64,000 nucleotides of DNA from Pirellulales bacterium (lineage in GTDB: Bacteria; Planctomycetota; Planctomycetia; Pirellulales; Lacipirellulaceae). Both the position numbers and the translations under genes were made by a program. Every line of letters begins with the position of its first letter. The first letter of the stretch is position 1. Where the stretch lies: NCBI GenBank assembly GCA_019636345.1, contig JAHBXQ010000002.1, forward strand, positions 372,001 through 436,000, written 5' to 3'. Shown here piece after piece: positions 2,533-7,887 of the stretch. Under the pieces are notes generated by a model that made no database searches, had not been told where the DNA came from, and saw nothing but the letters and a program-made list of their open reading frames with translations.

Positions 2533-3561
2533 TCACCGCCATTCCACTCCCAGCATCTGGCAGTTGATCCCCGAGCCGATGCCTAGCAGGGCAACGCGCT
2601 GGCCTTCCTGCAAGAACCCCGTCTCTGCGGCCATCGCCAGCGCCGACGGCAATGCCGCAGCGCCGGTGTTTCCCAGCATCTCGAACGTGCTGTAGTCGAT
2701 CGTCGAGTCGAGTTCCAACTGCTCGAACAGCAGCTTGCGGTGGGCGATCCCCACTTGGTGGCAGATCGTGCGGTCGATGTCGCCTCGCTCCCAACCGACC
2801 TCGCTCAAGAACTCACCGAAGGTCGCTTGGCCGGCTGCGACTCCCTCGCGCAGCAGCAGTTCGCTGTCGGTGTGCATGAAGGTCTCCAGCCCCGAACTCT
2901 GGCACAAGTCGTTGTGCGTCGTGTGGGCGCGGACGGCGCCGCCGAGGAGGCGCGAGGCGCGAGGGGCGAAGGATGAGTCGCTCAAGACCGCTGCGGCGCT
3001 CGCCGAGCCGATCGTCAGCGACGCCACGAGCGGTTTCACGTCGCGGCGCTTGAGCGAATGGTCGGTGTTGAGGCGGTGAATCGTGTTCTCGACAAGCGAC
3101 CGTCCGTCCTCCGTGCCGACGACGAGTCCCGCGCGAATCTGCCCCAGCTCGATCATGTTCGCCACAAGGGTCATTCCGGTGAGGATCCCGAGGCAGGCGT
3201 TCGAGACGTCGAAGATCGCGCATTCCGGCGGCAGCCCCAGGGCATGGTGGACCCCGCAGGCGGTTGCCGGTTCGAGGTAATCTCGGCAGACTGAGCCGTG
3301 GACCAGAGCGCCGATTTCGGCAGGGTCGATTCCCGCTGCGGCGAGCGCCTTGCGACCGCTTTCGACGCTGATCGCCCCGATGAGCGTTCCGGGCGGGAAA
3401 AACCGCCGCTCGCGGATCCCTGTCATCAACTCAAGCCGCCCCGCAGGAAGCTTGAGCCGCTGGTACGCCGGTGCGAGCCTGGCCTCGATCGATTCGCTCG
3501 CGATGCGCTCCTCCGGAAGCGTGTAGCCAAGTCCGGCGAGATGGACGCGTTGATACCGCAT
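2533..3561 (-). CDS. 3-oxoacyl-ACP synthase III / OleA-like thiolase
   Basis: A 342-residue condensing enzyme of the FabH/OleA type. The cysteine sits in DVSNACLGIL (about residue 125), the histidine in ICHQVGIAHRKLL and the asparagine in MLGNTGAAALP. The SVCRDYLEPATA segment and the ending LLGIGSGINCQMLGVEW are closer to OleA, which joins two fatty acyl-CoAs head to head for long-chain olefins, than to E. coli FabH as I remember those families. No oleB, oleC or oleD neighbour is visible, so the substrate is open. It converges on xylB with a 35-base gap. Confidence 0.82.
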   Translation of the reverse strand: MRYQRVHLAGLGYTLPEERIASESIEARLAPAYQRLKLPAGRLELMTGIRERRFFPPGTLIGAISVESGRKALAAAGIDPAEIGALVHGSVCRDYLEPATACGVHHALGLPPECAIFDVSNACLGILTGMTLVANMIELGQIRAGLVVGTEDGRSLVENTIHRLNTDHSLKRRDVKPLVASLTIGSASAAAVLSDSSFAPRASRLLGGAVRAHTTHNDLCQSSGLETFMHTDSELLLREGVAAGQATFGEFLSEVGWERGDIDRTICHQVGIAHRKLLFEQLELDSTIDYSTFEMLGNTGAAALPSALAMAAETGFLQEGQRVALLGIGSGINCQMLGVEWR

Positions 3562-3885
3562 CGGCGTGACAGTCGGAGCTGGGGAAACGGGCCGAATCCG
3601 CCAGAATAGGTCCCCCTGCCTCGCCAGTAAACGCCCGCGGCGAGGCGAGCCGAATCACGACGGCGCGACGATCTCCCCGGTTGGATCAGTGAACAGGCGC
3701 CCACTTCGACCGCAAGGTCAGACCCTTGCCAGTCCGCGATCTTTCTTGGTCGTGTTCATTGTGCTGTCGTGGTGGAGTGAGCCATTCCCGCCGTCAGCTC
3801 GACCTGGTATGTAAAGTATACTTGACTTTATGTAAAGAATGCTTTACAATGCGGACGTCAAGCAACGATTCGGGCTGCAGGTGTC
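3562..3885. other. Intergenic region upstream of the XRE operon
   Basis: This 324-base gap separates the divergent thiolase and XRE genes. The only clear content is the promoter/operator block at 3810-3850, which is strikingly A+T-rich against its surroundings. Confidence 0.5.
3810..3850 (+). promoter_or_regulatory. Promoter with two tandem palindromic operator half-repeats (XRE operon)
   Basis: TTGACT at 3822-3827 and TACAAT at 3845-3850 are spaced by 17 bases, a near-consensus housekeeping promoter. TGTAAAG (3831-3837), AATG, CTTTACA (3842-3848) is a perfect 7-base inverted repeat ending inside the -10 box. A second, imperfect copy, TGTAAAG-TATA-CTTGACT (3810-3827), lies exactly 21 bases upstream and covers the -35 box. 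Two sites two helical turns apart over the promoter suggest cooperative autorepression by the XRE protein encoded 36 bases downstream. The repressor assignment is inference. Confidence 0.8.
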
Positions 3886-4101
3886 ATGAAAGTCCACTTA
3901 AAACGACTTCGGCTCGAGCGCGACGGCATGACCCAGCAGGATCTTGCCGTCCGCATCGGCGTGACGCGGCAGACGATCATCGCCATCGAGCGGGGCAATT
4001 ATCAGCCGTCGGTCGAGCTGGCCCTCCGCCTGGCCCGGGTCTTTGGCATGCCAGTCGAAGCGATTTTCGAACTGGCTGAAGAAAGCGAGCAGTCGCCATG
4101 A
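3886..4101 (+). CDS. XRE-family helix-turn-helix regulator (Cro/C1-like, 71 aa)
   Basis: A minimal DNA-binding protein made of one HTH_3 domain. The helix-turn-helix reads MTQQDLAVRIGVTRQTIIA, then IERGNYQPSVELALRLARVF and a short acidic tail, the pattern of small YgzD-like repressors that travel with membrane proteins. The start is the first ATG after the promoter, with a weak GCAGG site. Its stop overlaps the next gene (ATGA), so the two are translationally coupled. It probably binds the tandem palindromes in its own promoter. Confidence 0.9.
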   Translation: MKVHLKRLRLERDGMTQQDLAVRIGVTRQTIIAIERGNYQPSVELALRLARVFGMPVEAIFELAEESEQSP

Positions 4102-4838
4102 ACGCGGGAATTGTCAGCAAACGGAAGGTTGGGGGGCAAATGGGGATCACCCCTTTCACTTGGCTTGCCGTCGGCTTGGTCGCGTCGGGGCTTGCTCTGG
4201 GAGTGACGGTCCACCGCGGGTGGATGATCCTCGCCGCTCTGGGGGCGTTCGGTCCCGGCGTGTTGCGGGAGTTGGGGGTGCTCCGCGATTTCGATGAGCT
4301 GCAACAGGCCGCTGCGGCCAAGGCGGGACTGCGGGCCTATCTGGCGACCGGCGTCGCACTGTTCGTCGCGGTCATCGGCCAAACTTGGAATCGGCTCGAC
4401 CTGGGGACCGATCTGGTCCCCGCGTCGCTCGTGCTGACCGTGGCCCTGGTGGTCTACTACGCAAGCTACTGCCTCAGCTTCTGGGACCCGAAGGTCGCGG
4501 TGTCGCGGGTGCTGTGGGCCTTTGGCCTGCTGTGGCTGGCCTTTGTGTTGATGAGCCACGGCAACGAACCGGTTGCGGCGCTCGCGGAGGGGTTGATCGT
4601 CCCCGGGCCGTTCATCTTGGGAGCGCTGCTCTGCAAACGCTGGCCGCGGGCCGTCGGGGCGGGGTTGCTCGTCGCGTGCGCGGCGATCATCTGCTTTTTC
4701 GGCATGTATCAACTCGGTGACGCGGAGTCGCGGAACCACGCGGGGCGAATGTACACGATCACGCTGATCCCGTTGCCATTGGCGATCGCCGGCGTGGCGC
4801 TTGTCACCGCGGAACCCGACGACGAGGAATCGAAATGA
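4098..4838 (+). CDS. Polytopic membrane protein in XRE-CPBP operon
   Basis: A 246-residue protein with about seven hydrophobic segments, for example near residues 19-50, 75-95, 110-130, 140-160 and 170-200, and a charged end (EPDDEESK). I do not recognise a named family. The start overlaps the XRE stop by 4 bases; MGITPF, 14 codons in, is an alternative start closer to the first membrane helix. Its stop overlaps the CPBP start. Small XRE repressors are often paired with membrane proteins of unknown function, so a regulated membrane or stress module is plausible, but its function is unknown. Confidence 0.8.
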   Translation: MNAGIVSKRKVGGQMGITPFTWLAVGLVASGLALGVTVHRGWMILAALGAFGPGVLRELGVLRDFDELQQAAAAKAGLRAYLATGVALFVAVIGQTWNRLDLGTDLVPASLVLTVALVVYYASYCLSFWDPKVAVSRVLWAFGLLWLAFVLMSHGNEPVAALAEGLIVPGPFILGALLCKRWPRAVGAGLLVACAAIICFFGMYQLGDAESRNHAGRMYTITLIPLPLAIAGVALVTAEPDDEESK

Positions 4839-5590
4839 GCTTGCAACCCGAGCGGTCCACGGACGAATCGCCGGTCGCCCGCCGGCGCGATCTGGCCGCG
4901 GTGCTCTTTGCGCTGGTCCTGCCGACAATCGTCACCTGGCTCTACTTCTATCATGCTGAGCGGTGGCCCAGCGCGGTGCAGGGGGCGGTGTTCGGAACGG
5001 TCAAGGTCCTCCAATTCGCATTCCCCGCGGCGTGGGTCGTGTTCGTTCTGCGTCGGCGGTTGCGGCCCGGTTGGTCGGGAACGAGCGGCGTCGGGTTGGG
5101 GCTGGCGTTCGGGGGGGCGGTCGCCGCGGCGATGGTCGGGCTCTATCTCGGCTGGCTCCGCCAGGCGCCGGAGTTTTCCGAAGCTGCCGAAGCGATGCGG
5201 GCGAAGGTCGCGGGCTTGGGACTCGACAGCGCGGCCAAATACGTCGCAATCGGCGTCTTCTACAGCGTCTGTCACTCGCTCCTCGAAGAGTACTACTGGC
5301 GGTGGTTCGTGTTCGGCCAGCTTGAGCGGTTCGTCCCCGTGAATGCCGCAATTGCGATCTCCTCCTTGGGGTTTATGTCCCATCATGTTCTGGTGGTGGG
5401 AAAGTACTTCGGCTTCACGAACTGGCTGACTTGGTTTCTGTCGTTGTCCGTCGCTGTCGGAGGAGCAGCGTGGGCGTGGCTTTACCGGCGATCCGGTTCC
5501 CTGTGGGGCCCCTGGGCGAGCCACTTGGCGGTCGATGCCGCGATTTTCAGTCTCGGGTATGCGATCGTCTGCGACCTGTGGCAGGGCTGA
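4835..5590 (+). CDS. CPBP family intramembrane metalloprotease
   Basis: A 251-residue membrane protein with the three CPBP (CAAX protease and bacteriocin-processing, formerly Abi) motifs: EEYYWRWFVFG (the EExxxR motif, about residue 151), the FMSHH motif near 177 and SHLAVDAAIF near 232. The glutamates and histidines would bind the active-site metal inside the membrane. Relatives mature or degrade membrane peptides and some give bacteriocin self-immunity. It is the third gene of the XRE operon (ATGA overlap). The substrate is unknown; no prenylated-protein or bacteriocin gene is adjacent. Confidence 0.88.
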   Translation: MSLQPERSTDESPVARRRDLAAVLFALVLPTIVTWLYFYHAERWPSAVQGAVFGTVKVLQFAFPAAWVVFVLRRRLRPGWSGTSGVGLGLAFGGAVAAAMVGLYLGWLRQAPEFSEAAEAMRAKVAGLGLDSAAKYVAIGVFYSVCHSLLEEYYWRWFVFGQLERFVPVNAAIAISSLGFMSHHVLVVGKYFGFTNWLTWFLSLSVAVGGAAWAWLYRRSGSLWGPWASHLAVDAAIFSLGYAIVCDLWQG

Positions 5591-6387
5591 GCCGGATTGC
5601 AGCAGACGTCGCATGGCGGAGAAACCGCAGCAAAACGCGGGCGTCCGGTCATCCCCTCGCGCTTCGTCGGCTCGATTCAGATCGCGAACGAGGGAACGAT
5701 CCGTCGAACCGGTTCCATCGCAGCGGTTGTGAACCAAGTCCGTGGATCGAGGTTGAGCTCTCCGCGCACCTCAGCGGGCAAACCGCCTACGATTCTTGTG
5801 ACGCGAGGGGTCGGAATCCGCCTCACGCGCAGCGTATTCGCCCGTTCGCGCAGCCAGCACTGCTAGCGGCGACCACACGATGTTGAGGCGTGCGGTCTGC
5901 CGTGTCGCAAGATAGGCGATTCGTTTGTGCTGCGTGACGAAGTTGATACCCTGCGGCCGACTTGCATCCTTTCCGACCGCGTGACACGGTCGAACAGCAG
6001 AAGGAGATCGAGGCCAATAGGATAGGGAAATCGATCGGCGTGGCGCCGGTCGAGACGAAAGACGGCCTGCCGGGCCGGGCGTTCGTCTCGCAAAGCCTTG
6101 CGTCGTGACGCCGCCTCCGGCAGTACGGATGGCAGCAGGGCCCATGGAAGGGACCCGACGTTCGCTCGGCAAGGCCGAGGGAGGACGTTGGCCTGCGACT
6201 CCGCTTGCTTCTCGGTTCTCGCTCGACGGGCGTTTCTCGTCGGAGTTTGGGCAGCCGCTGGCGGTTCGATTTCTCGCCGAGCGCCGACATTCCGCCCCGT
6301 CCAGCCGGCAAGGGTTTGCCGGGGGGCTCCTCGACTGCTGCCACTTCCCCCGTGCGCCACGACGGCGCTGGAAAGGACGAGCAAACG
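5591..6387. other. 797-base gap with no supported gene
   Basis: Open frames here look like noise: Arg/Pro-rich, without a ribosome site or recognisable motif. No tRNA-like T-loop, tandem repeat or strong hairpin was seen. It probably carries the promoter and leader of the C26 gene at 6388. Confidence 0.4.
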
Positions 6388-7131
6388 ATGACCAAACCGC
6401 TGATTGCGATCAATCTGGATTACCGCACTGGGAAACAAGACGGACAGGCTTTCTCCTTCGTGGCTGCCGACTACTACGACGCCATTCACGAAGCGGGGGG
6501 CCTGCCGCTGCTGTTGCCTCCCTACAACGACGAGGCTGACCTCGAAGCGGTGCTAGAGCGAGTCGACGGCGTGCTGATGATCGGCGGCGCCGACCTCGAC
6601 CCGCGTCGCGACGGCTGGATGCTGCACCCGACCGTCCGGCTGCAGGACCCGCGGCGGGAATCGTTCGATCGGATGCTGATGCGAGTCGTCAGCGAGCGGC
6701 GGATTCCCGTCTTGGGGATCGGCGCCGGGATGCAACTGCTCAATATCGCCAACGGCGGCAATCTCATGCTCCACATTCCCGAGGACATGCCGACCGCGCT
6801 CCCCCACTTCGATCCGCTGGATCCCGATCATCGCCACACGCTGGTGCTCACGCCAGGGTCGATCATGGACCGCGTCTACGGCGACGGCGAGCTGCGGGTC
6901 AACAGCATGCACCACATGGCGATCGACGACTTGGCGCCCGGCTTTGCCGTGACCGCCCGCTGTCCGGACGGGGTCGTCGAGGCGATCGAGAGCGAGATGC
7001 CCGATTGGTTCGCCCTGGGGACGCAGTTCCACCCCGAATCTCGCACCGCGTCGGCGCTCGATCTGCGAATCTTCGAGGAGTTCGTCGTGGGCGTGACCGA
7101 GTTGCGGACCGCGGTTCGGCTGGTCGCTTAA
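6388..7131 (+). CDS. Class C26 glutamine amidotransferase-like protein lacking the catalytic cysteine
   Basis: A 247-residue protein with the fold signatures of gamma-glutamyl-GABA hydrolase (PuuD-like): IAINLDYR at the N-terminus, FVAADYYDAIHEAGGLPLLL, MIGGADLDP near residue 68 and QFHPES near 216, which keeps the His and Glu of the triad. The nucleophile elbow, normally GICRG(M/I)Q, reads GIGAGMQ, so the cysteine is Gly112. Hydrolase activity by the known mechanism is therefore unlikely; it may be a binding or regulatory pseudo-enzyme. The ATG at 6388 matches the family N-terminus; longer upstream frames are not supported. Confidence 0.85.
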   Translation: MTKPLIAINLDYRTGKQDGQAFSFVAADYYDAIHEAGGLPLLLPPYNDEADLEAVLERVDGVLMIGGADLDPRRDGWMLHPTVRLQDPRRESFDRMLMRVVSERRIPVLGIGAGMQLLNIANGGNLMLHIPEDMPTALPHFDPLDPDHRHTLVLTPGSIMDRVYGDGELRVNSMHHMAIDDLAPGFAVTARCPDGVVEAIESEMPDWFALGTQFHPESRTASALDLRIFEEFVVGVTELRTAVRLVA

Positions 7132-7308
7132 CGCTTGAGTTGATTTACCAGGAGATGGCACGGGCGAGCGTGCGGCGACCTCCCGCAAGGCCGCCGCCGC
7201 TCGCGCTCGACCAGGACGCGAGAGCAAGTGCACCACGCCCGCGGAGCCGGCCAGGACGCCGCCCGCGGGCTTTCATTTGGTGTCGGATGACTTGCCGTAC
7301 GCCGCCAA

Positions 7309-7887
7309 TCACAAATCGCCGACCACCCTCAAAAACTCCCTCATCCAAGCCGGATTCGCCGGCCAAGCGGGGGCGGTGACGAGATTGCCGTCGACATGGA
7401 CGCTGTCGAGGCTCGGGCTGGGGGGCGCCCATGTGGCGCCTGCTTGTTCCAATTGGGGGCGGACGCTTGGGTAGGCTTGGCACTCGCGGCCGCTCACCAC
7501 CCCCGCGGCTGCCAAGATCATCGGTCCGTGACAGGTCGCGGCCACCGGTTTCCCTGCAGCGAAGAAGTCTCGCACCAAGGCGAGCACTCGCTCGTCGAGT
7601 TGCAGGTACTCCGGCGAGCGTCCCCCGGGGATGACCAACGCGTCGTAATTCGCGGCCCGTGCCGCTGCAAAGTCGGCGTTCAGCGGGAAGTTGTGCCCCC
7701 GCTTTTCGGAGTAGGTCTGCTGTCCCTCGAAGTCGTGGATTGCCGTCACGACGACCTCGCCGGCCCGCTTGTCGGGGCAGACGACGTCGACCGCATGGCC
7801 GACCATCTGCAAGATCTGCAGCGGGACCATGCATTCGTAATCTTCGACGAAGTCGCCGACGAGCATCAGGACGCGTTTGGCAGGCAT
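7309..7887 (-). CDS. DJ-1/PfpI family protein
   Basis: A 192-residue protein of the DJ-1/PfpI/ThiJ fold. The nucleophile elbow AATCHGPM places Cys119 and His120, and GDFVEDYE near residues 11-18 supplies the acidic partner. [12 protein letters not shown] is typical of the PfpI branch. Relatives act on reactive carbonyl damage or as proteases or chaperones, and the branch cannot be assigned from sequence alone. It lies 74 bases downstream of the YbgC-like gene on the same strand and may share its transcript. Confidence 0.88.

What the first reader, a model, noticed from the sequence alone, without database searches (positions are those of the whole stretch)
3810..5590. Operator-promoter cassette controlling an XRE / membrane protein / CPBP protease operon
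Two palindromic sites, TGTAAAG-N4-CTTTACA and an imperfect copy 21 bases away, overlie the -35 and -10 boxes of a near-consensus promoter in front of three ATGA-coupled genes. Exact two-turn spacing predicts cooperative autorepression. The product set (small repressor, polytopic membrane protein, intramembrane protease) has no known task and could be a stress-responsive or self-immunity module.
Basis: partly seen in the sequence, partly recalled or inferred. Interest (0 to 1): 0.6.

Follow-up and report, generated by a model that had tools for sequence, protein, structure and literature searches.

The report
Self-repressing promoter of a membrane-sensor operon
A small DNA-binding repressor and a multi-span membrane protein are made from a promoter built out of the repressor's own two binding sites; the same promoter-and-gene pair recurs in many bacterial phyla, and here a neighbouring membrane-protease gene has come under its control.

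Summary
Two palindromes (3810-3827, 12 of 14 positions; 3831-3848, perfect) lie 21 bp apart over the -35 and -10 of TTGACT-17-TACAAT, before three genes joined by two ATGA overlaps. They are the only such sites (up to 2 mismatches) in the 5.18 Mb genome.

All XRE+membrane-protein pairs found in relatives have the cassette, or a degenerate form of it, upstream. An exact scan of 84,980 genomes for the double site (about 0.03 chance hits expected) gave 28 loci in at least 8 phyla; 26 have a CylR2-type XRE in the same operon. Loci fetched by XRE sequence alone show tandem operators in 30 of 40 cases, against 0 of 20 weaker controls.

The protease orthologue occurs in 26 of 40 relatives, typically between fabH and a C26 peptidase, without XRE or MEM. 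The real module is XRE+MEM; the protease is a resident gene captured downstream.

Membrane partners, though very divergent, share a cytoplasmic D-E-x4-I loop (31 of 35, 2.3 expected). Best reading: an autorepressor held or released by a membrane partner, working like CylR1/CylR2 or SdpR/SdpI. Signal unknown. Self-immunity is not supported.

The parts
3810..3827 (.). Operator 1, TGTAAAGTATACTTGACT; its right arm contains the -35
   Evidence: conserved in relatives
3831..3848 (.). Operator 2, perfect palindrome TGTAAAGAATGCTTTACA; its right arm overlaps the -10
   Evidence: conserved
3822..3850 (+). Sigma-70-type promoter TTGACT-17-TACAAT
   Evidence: the final T of the -10 (TACANT) is kept in 93% of 29 cassettes although the search pattern did not demand it
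3886..4101 (+). XRE repressor gene, 71 aa, CylR2/PbsX-type; the only such gene in the genome
   Evidence: HTH_3 E 1.5e-15; DR_2454 and CylR2 as nearest solved structures by sequence and fold; single match in own genome
4098..4838 (+). MEM, about 7-span membrane protein, 246 aa, cytoplasmic D66-E67 loop motif; proposed partner of the XRE
   Evidence: no Pfam family above cut-off; conserved XRE+MEM pair in relatives; DE motif
4835..5590 (+). CPBP-family intramembrane protease gene, 251 aa, active-site residues intact; resident gene captured downstream
   Evidence: PF02517 E 3e-14; E151, E152, R156, H183, H184, H230, D234 kept in at least 95% of 25 orthologues; conserved fabH-CPBP-C26 order
4098..4101 (+). 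ATGA stop-start overlap XRE/MEM
4835..4838 (+). ATGA stop-start overlap MEM/CPBP

Best explanation
A two-gene, self-regulated membrane switch. The XRE dimer binds both palindromes, which sit on one face of the DNA two helical turns apart and are also the -35 and -10 of the promoter, so bound repressor and RNA polymerase exclude each other (strongly inferred from sequence). XRE and MEM are made together and keep themselves at a low level. MEM is the receiver: when its unknown membrane-side stimulus appears, its cytoplasmic D-E-x4-I loop holds XRE at the membrane or otherwise prevents it from binding DNA, and the operon is induced (inferred from the conserved pairing and loop, and by analogy with SdpR/SdpI and CylR1/CylR2). 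In this genome the cassette lies between fabH and a resident CPBP protease gene, so the protease is now induced with the switch (inferred from synteny and the ATGA overlap).
For: Operator and promoter in the window. Same cassette in front of XRE+MEM in G013, G014 and G050, with degenerate versions of the same geometry in three more distant MEM loci. 28 hits in at least 8 phyla, 26 with a CylR2-type XRE in the same operon. Loci fetched by XRE similarity only: 30 of 40 best matches have a tandem operator scoring above all 60 shuffles of their own upstream DNA, mostly at 21 bp or 25-27 bp; 0 of 20 weaker matches, mostly HTH domains in longer proteins, do. In ten such genomes exact sites fall almost only at these operons, so regulation is local. 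Invariant D, E and I in 18 divergent membrane partners; motif in 31 of 35 adjacent membrane ORFs of the XRE-selected loci against 2.3 expected; MEM aligns to that family across the loop (hhalign probability 81.5, E 1e-5). XRE fold matches DR_2454 and CylR2. CPBP is resident. Precedents: VanUG, a small autorepressor footprinted over two adjacent imperfect palindromes at its own -35 (PMC4405338); SdpI sequesters SdpR at the membrane (PMC1626106).
Against: No binding, transcription or interaction data. The DE loop could serve the membrane protein's own structure rather than dock XRE. MEM matches no Pfam family above cut-off and its AlphaFold model is weak (pLDDT 64; no fold match). The MEM-to-4-span alignment covers only 64 columns. 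Ten of 40 XRE-selected loci show no convincing operator, and one of the 28 pattern hits (L073) has no XRE. The 28 hits had spacing fixed by the pattern. The profile used to select the 60 loci was built largely from operator-bearing XREs.
Confidence: 0.6

Rival explanations
1. XRE is an autorepressor of this operon, but MEM is only a regulated effector (for example a transporter or envelope protein); XRE itself, or another factor, senses the signal.
For: Only the repressor side is firmly conserved by cis evidence; MEM has an extra C-terminal part (weak DUF7670-like match) that could be a functional domain.
Against: XRE has no ligand domain, only about 71 residues. The partners differ greatly except for a cytoplasmic loop motif, which fits a shared contact with XRE better than many unrelated effectors.
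Confidence: 0.25
2. The three genes are one functional unit: the CPBP protease cuts MEM (or a MEM-XRE complex) to release or destroy the repressor.
For: ATGA coupling and an intact protease active site.
Against: CPBP orthologues live without XRE/MEM in the great majority of relatives, in a conserved fabH-C26 setting; XRE+MEM pairs elsewhere have no CPBP after them.
Confidence: 0.08
3. A toxin-antitoxin or self-immunity pair with the membrane protein as toxin or immunity protein.
For: XRE repressors are common antitoxins; Makarova et al. 2009 (PMC2701414) list XRE + membrane-protein pairs and allow that they might be novel toxin-antitoxin systems, while excluding them.
Against: No specific match of MEM or CPBP in a defence or phage library; double operator absent from IMG/VR viral contigs; housekeeping surroundings; no peptide toxin gene seen next to it.
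Confidence: 0.05
4. The palindromes are chance or serve an unrelated regulator.
For: The single-site count in this genome equals that of the reversed-pattern control.
Against: Double-site conservation across phyla, nearly always next to the same XRE type.
Confidence: 0.02

Closest known systems
CylR1/CylR2 of Enterococcus faecalis (PMC3709268; CylR2 structures 1UTX, 2XIU)
   Same: Small stand-alone XRE repressor (40% identity, TM-score 0.84 to 1UTX) encoded with a membrane protein; repressor bound at its promoter until a membrane-linked signal.
   Different: CylR1 has three predicted spans, MEM about seven; the CylR pair also controls a divergent lantibiotic operon, absent here. Operator sequences were not compared.
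SdpR/SdpI of Bacillus subtilis (PMC1626106)
   Same: Two-gene autorepressor + polytopic membrane receptor operon; the receptor sequesters the repressor at the membrane.
   Different: SdpR is not an XRE protein (ArsR family, own knowledge); SdpI is an immunity protein for a known toxin; no such toxin here.
XRE + YoaS-like / PA2784-like / PA4076-like membrane gene pairs (Makarova et al. 2009, PMC2701414)
   Same: Recurrent XRE repressor + membrane protein gene pairs, noted and set aside there as not classical toxin-antitoxin systems.
   Different: No operator, shared loop motif or mechanism was seen in the passages read; whether MEM or the DE-loop proteins belong to those three groups was not tested, except that DUF2975 (YoaS family) loci here lack this XRE and operator.
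VanUG repressor of the vanG operon (PMC4405338)
   Same: Small autorepressor footprinted on two adjacent imperfect palindromes overlapping the -35 of its own promoter.
   Different: Encoded with a two-component system, not with a single membrane partner.
DR_2454 of Deinococcus radiodurans (PDB 9K3W)
   Same: Nearest solved structure (50% identity, rmsd 0.7 A).
   Different: Function not found described in the library searched.
DUF2178 membrane proteins (PF09946)
   Same: 4-span partners in the same kind of operon; share the DE-x4-I loop.
   Different: MEM itself does not match DUF2178 and is about twice as long.

Membership tests
CylR2/PbsX-type small XRE repressors | Stand-alone HTH of about 65-75 residues with short terminal strands | tested here: met
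   71 aa; AlphaFold pLDDT 90.8; TM 0.84 to CylR2, 0.83-0.85 to DR_2454
CylR2/PbsX-type small XRE repressors | Recognition helix [ST]RQ[TS][IV] followed by xx[IL]ExxxYxPS | tested here: met
   alignment A3 of 24 members and CylR2 alignment
CylR2/PbsX-type small XRE repressors | Binds an inverted repeat at its own promoter | not testable with these tools
   operator conservation only; needs gel shift
CylR1/CylR2 system | Membrane partner in the same operon | tested here: met
   MEM at 4098-4838 with ATGA overlap; pair conserved
CylR1/CylR2 system | Controls a divergent lantibiotic operon | tested here: not met
   the divergent neighbour is fabH (3-oxoacyl-ACP synthase III)
SdpR/SdpI system | Repressor of the ArsR family | tested here: not met
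   HTH_3/XRE
SdpR/SdpI system | Membrane protein sequesters the repressor | not testable with these tools
   needs localisation or interaction assay
DUF2178 (PF09946) | Match to the Pfam model above cut-off | tested here: not met
   MEM family gives DUF7670/DUF3169 below cut-off, no DUF2178
CPBP / Rce1-like intramembrane proteases | PF02517 and EExxxR, H, HxxxD motifs | tested here: met
   E 3e-14, 53.5 bits over cut-off 22.4; motif residues kept in at least 95% of 25 orthologues
Type II toxin-antitoxin systems | Partner is a recognised soluble toxin | tested here: not met
   partner is a polytopic membrane protein with no toxin family match

The most novel reading that the evidence does not exclude
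A pan-bacterial class of one-step membrane switches: a CylR2-type autorepressor plus a membrane receptor marked by a cytoplasmic D-E-x4-I loop, driven by a promoter whose -35 and -10 are themselves the right half-sites of two operators set exactly two helical turns apart, with variable downstream genes (here a CPBP protease; elsewhere a signal peptidase-like or oxidoreductase-like gene) plugged in as output.
Probability: 0.45. Interest if true: 0.65.

Novelty: new variant of a known kind. Interest (0 to 1): 0.5.

Why it matters
Small XRE + membrane-protein pairs have been noted for years and set aside without a mechanism. Here a single cis cassette and a single cytoplasmic loop motif tie very different membrane partners to one repressor type across at least eight phyla. 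That turns an 'unknown' gene pair into a testable switch, with clear targets (operator half-sites, D66/E67), and suggests that genes placed after it are outputs rather than parts.

Tried and rejected
XRE-MEM-CPBP as a conserved three-gene module: rejected by synteny. DUF2975 (YoaS-type) genes in the same and related genomes as carriers of the same operator: none have this XRE or the site. Viral or mobile origin: double operator absent from IMG/VR. Fold identity of MEM: model too weak (pLDDT 64) and no PDB match below E 0.3. A published description of TGTAAAG-N4-CTTTACA as an XRE operator: the sequence search of papers was swamped by unrelated hits; the XRE-palindrome survey PMC12565409 (223 motif clusters) gives no such sequence in its main text, so this motif may still be among its clusters. 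DUF2178 is mentioned in no paper of the library; the CylR2-DNA paper (PMC517608) is not held. Phasing of the 28 pattern hits is not evidence for 21 bp because the pattern fixed it; only the loci count for spacing.

Full report
What is in the sequence. Two 18-bp palindromes, TGTAAAGTATACTTGACT (3810-3827) and TGTAAAGAATGCTTTACA (3831-3848), have centres 21 bp apart. The promoter TTGACT-17-TACAAT (3822-3850) is built from their right arms: CTTGACt supplies the -35, CTTTACAat supplies the -10. Because the -35 hexamer starts at base 2 and the -10 at base 4 of the right half-site, a 21-bp operator spacing gives exactly the optimal 17-bp promoter spacer. Downstream are XRE (3886-4101), MEM (4098-4838) and CPBP (4835-5590), joined by two ATGA overlaps. 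The two sites are the only ones with up to two mismatches in the 5.18 Mb genome, and the XRE is the only gene of its kind there.

The module is XRE + MEM. A search of the family (44 genomes) found MEM in three other genomes, G014 (59% over 9-237), G013 (54%) and G050 (37%); each has the XRE directly before it (73, 75 and 51% identity) and the same double operator and promoter. A class-wide sample (398 genomes) added distant MEM genes; L055, L056 and L057 have the XRE and a degenerate double site with the same 21-bp geometry. The fourth added match, L058, is a weak partial one with neither.

The protease is not part of it. CPBP orthologues are in 26 of 40 relatives counting the window's own genome, and apart from the window none has XRE or MEM beside it. 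In most family members the order is divergent fabH, CPBP, then C26 peptidase, often then a DJ-1-like gene. In the window the same genes flank, with the cassette, XRE and MEM lying between fabH and CPBP. G013 and G014 carry XRE+MEM and CPBP at separate places. So CPBP has been brought under the XRE promoter here. Its catalytic residues are intact.

Breadth. One exact scan of 84,980 genomes with TGTNAAGNNNNCTTGACNNNNNGTNAAGNNNNCTNNACA returned 28 loci in Planctomycetota, Spirochaetota, Bacillota, Gammaproteobacteria, Actinomycetota, Verrucomicrobiota, Chloroflexota and Bacteroidota. With 22 fixed bases in about 2 x 257 Gb, about 0.03 are expected for even base composition. Twenty-six have a small CylR2-like XRE in the same operon; in two Hymenobacter loci the operon runs from the palindromes in the other direction; in L068 the XRE frame is broken by one stop. 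L072 is cut off by the end of the fetched stretch, and L073 has no XRE. The order may be XRE-membrane or membrane-XRE. In 29 aligned cassettes the last base of TACANT, not fixed by the pattern, is T in 93%, which supports a working -10.

A test not based on the pattern. The XRE profile alone was used to fetch loci from Chloroflexota (about 100 genomes) and the window's order (197 genomes). For each, the 1.2 kb upstream was scored for any pair of sites 18-40 bp apart against 60 local shuffles. Among the 40 best matches (L103-L121, L133-L153) 30 exceed every shuffle; spacing is most often 21 bp, with a second group at 25-27 bp. Among the 20 weaker matches, mostly HTH domains of longer proteins, none does. 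The profile came largely from operator-bearing XREs, so this shows family specificity rather than a property of all XRE proteins. In ten genomes reached through the loci, exact sites TGTNAAG-N4-CTTNACA lie almost only at these operons.

The membrane partners. Eighteen partners of about 120-165 aa share only 12-26% identity with the first, yet D83, E84 and I89 are invariant; four match DUF2178. In the XRE-selected loci 31 of 35 adjacent membrane ORFs carry D-E-x4-[ILVMA], 2.3 expected by shuffling; the four exceptions are three loci where the script took a downstream gene of 440-500 residues and one with an altered motif (the true partner of L104 is the L074 protein, which has the motif). MEM has D66-E67 at the matching place, between its second and third helices, and profile comparison aligns MEM to the short partners across this loop. 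Positive residues at the N terminus and in this loop put it in the cytoplasm (inference from sequence), where the repressor is.

The repressor. Its model (pLDDT 90.8) matches DR_2454 (50% identity, rmsd 0.7 A) and CylR2 (40%, 1.2 A). CylR2 is released from its promoter upon a signal thought to pass through the membrane protein CylR1 (PMC3709268). VanUG is a footprinted precedent for a small autorepressor on tandem palindromes at the -35 (PMC4405338). SdpI is the precedent for a membrane protein that sequesters its autorepressor (PMC1626106). Makarova et al. listed XRE + membrane pairs but set them aside (PMC2701414).

Judgement. Shown: the sites, promoter, overlaps, wide conservation of cassette with XRE, resident nature of CPBP, shared loop motif. 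Inferred: autorepression (very likely), cooperative binding (likely, from the phase), MEM as receptor that removes XRE (more likely than not), CPBP as output (likely). Unknown: the stimulus. Novelty is limited by the known CylR and YoaS-type pairs and by an XRE motif survey whose motif table could not be read.

Noticed in passing
L136, L139, L141, L144, L145, L149-L151 (Pirellulales-order relatives), L088, L119: A second operator geometry, with sites 25-27 bp apart (for example TGTAAAATAGACTTGACATTCACTGTGTCAAGTCTATCATACATT), in front of related membrane-XRE operons.
   Followed up: partly
L063 and L072 (Wenzhouxiangella): Three sites in a row, each 21 bp apart, the third downstream of the -10.
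   Followed up: no
L073:4624-4662: A good double operator with no XRE in the 8 kb held, before a Na/Pi-cotransporter-like gene: possible target of a distant regulator or a chance match.
   Followed up: no
G787:C31:71418-71463: A second pair of exact sites, starts 28 bp apart, elsewhere in a Hamadaea genome.
   Followed up: no
L078:3132-3800; region after XRE in L065, L077, L069: Other genes overlapping the end of the XRE-membrane pair (signal peptidase I-like; quinone oxidoreductase-like, by eye), as CPBP does in the window: the downstream gene varies.
   Followed up: partly
window 2533-7887: Conserved block fabH-like / CPBP / C26 peptidase / DJ-1-like in most family members; why this CPBP stays between fabH and C26 is unexplained.
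   Followed up: partly
L068 about 603-815: XRE gene broken by one in-frame stop next to an intact-looking cassette.
   Followed up: no
L055, L056, L057: Distant MEM loci keep the 21-bp geometry while the second site drifts in sequence, as if repressor and operator changed together.
   Followed up: no
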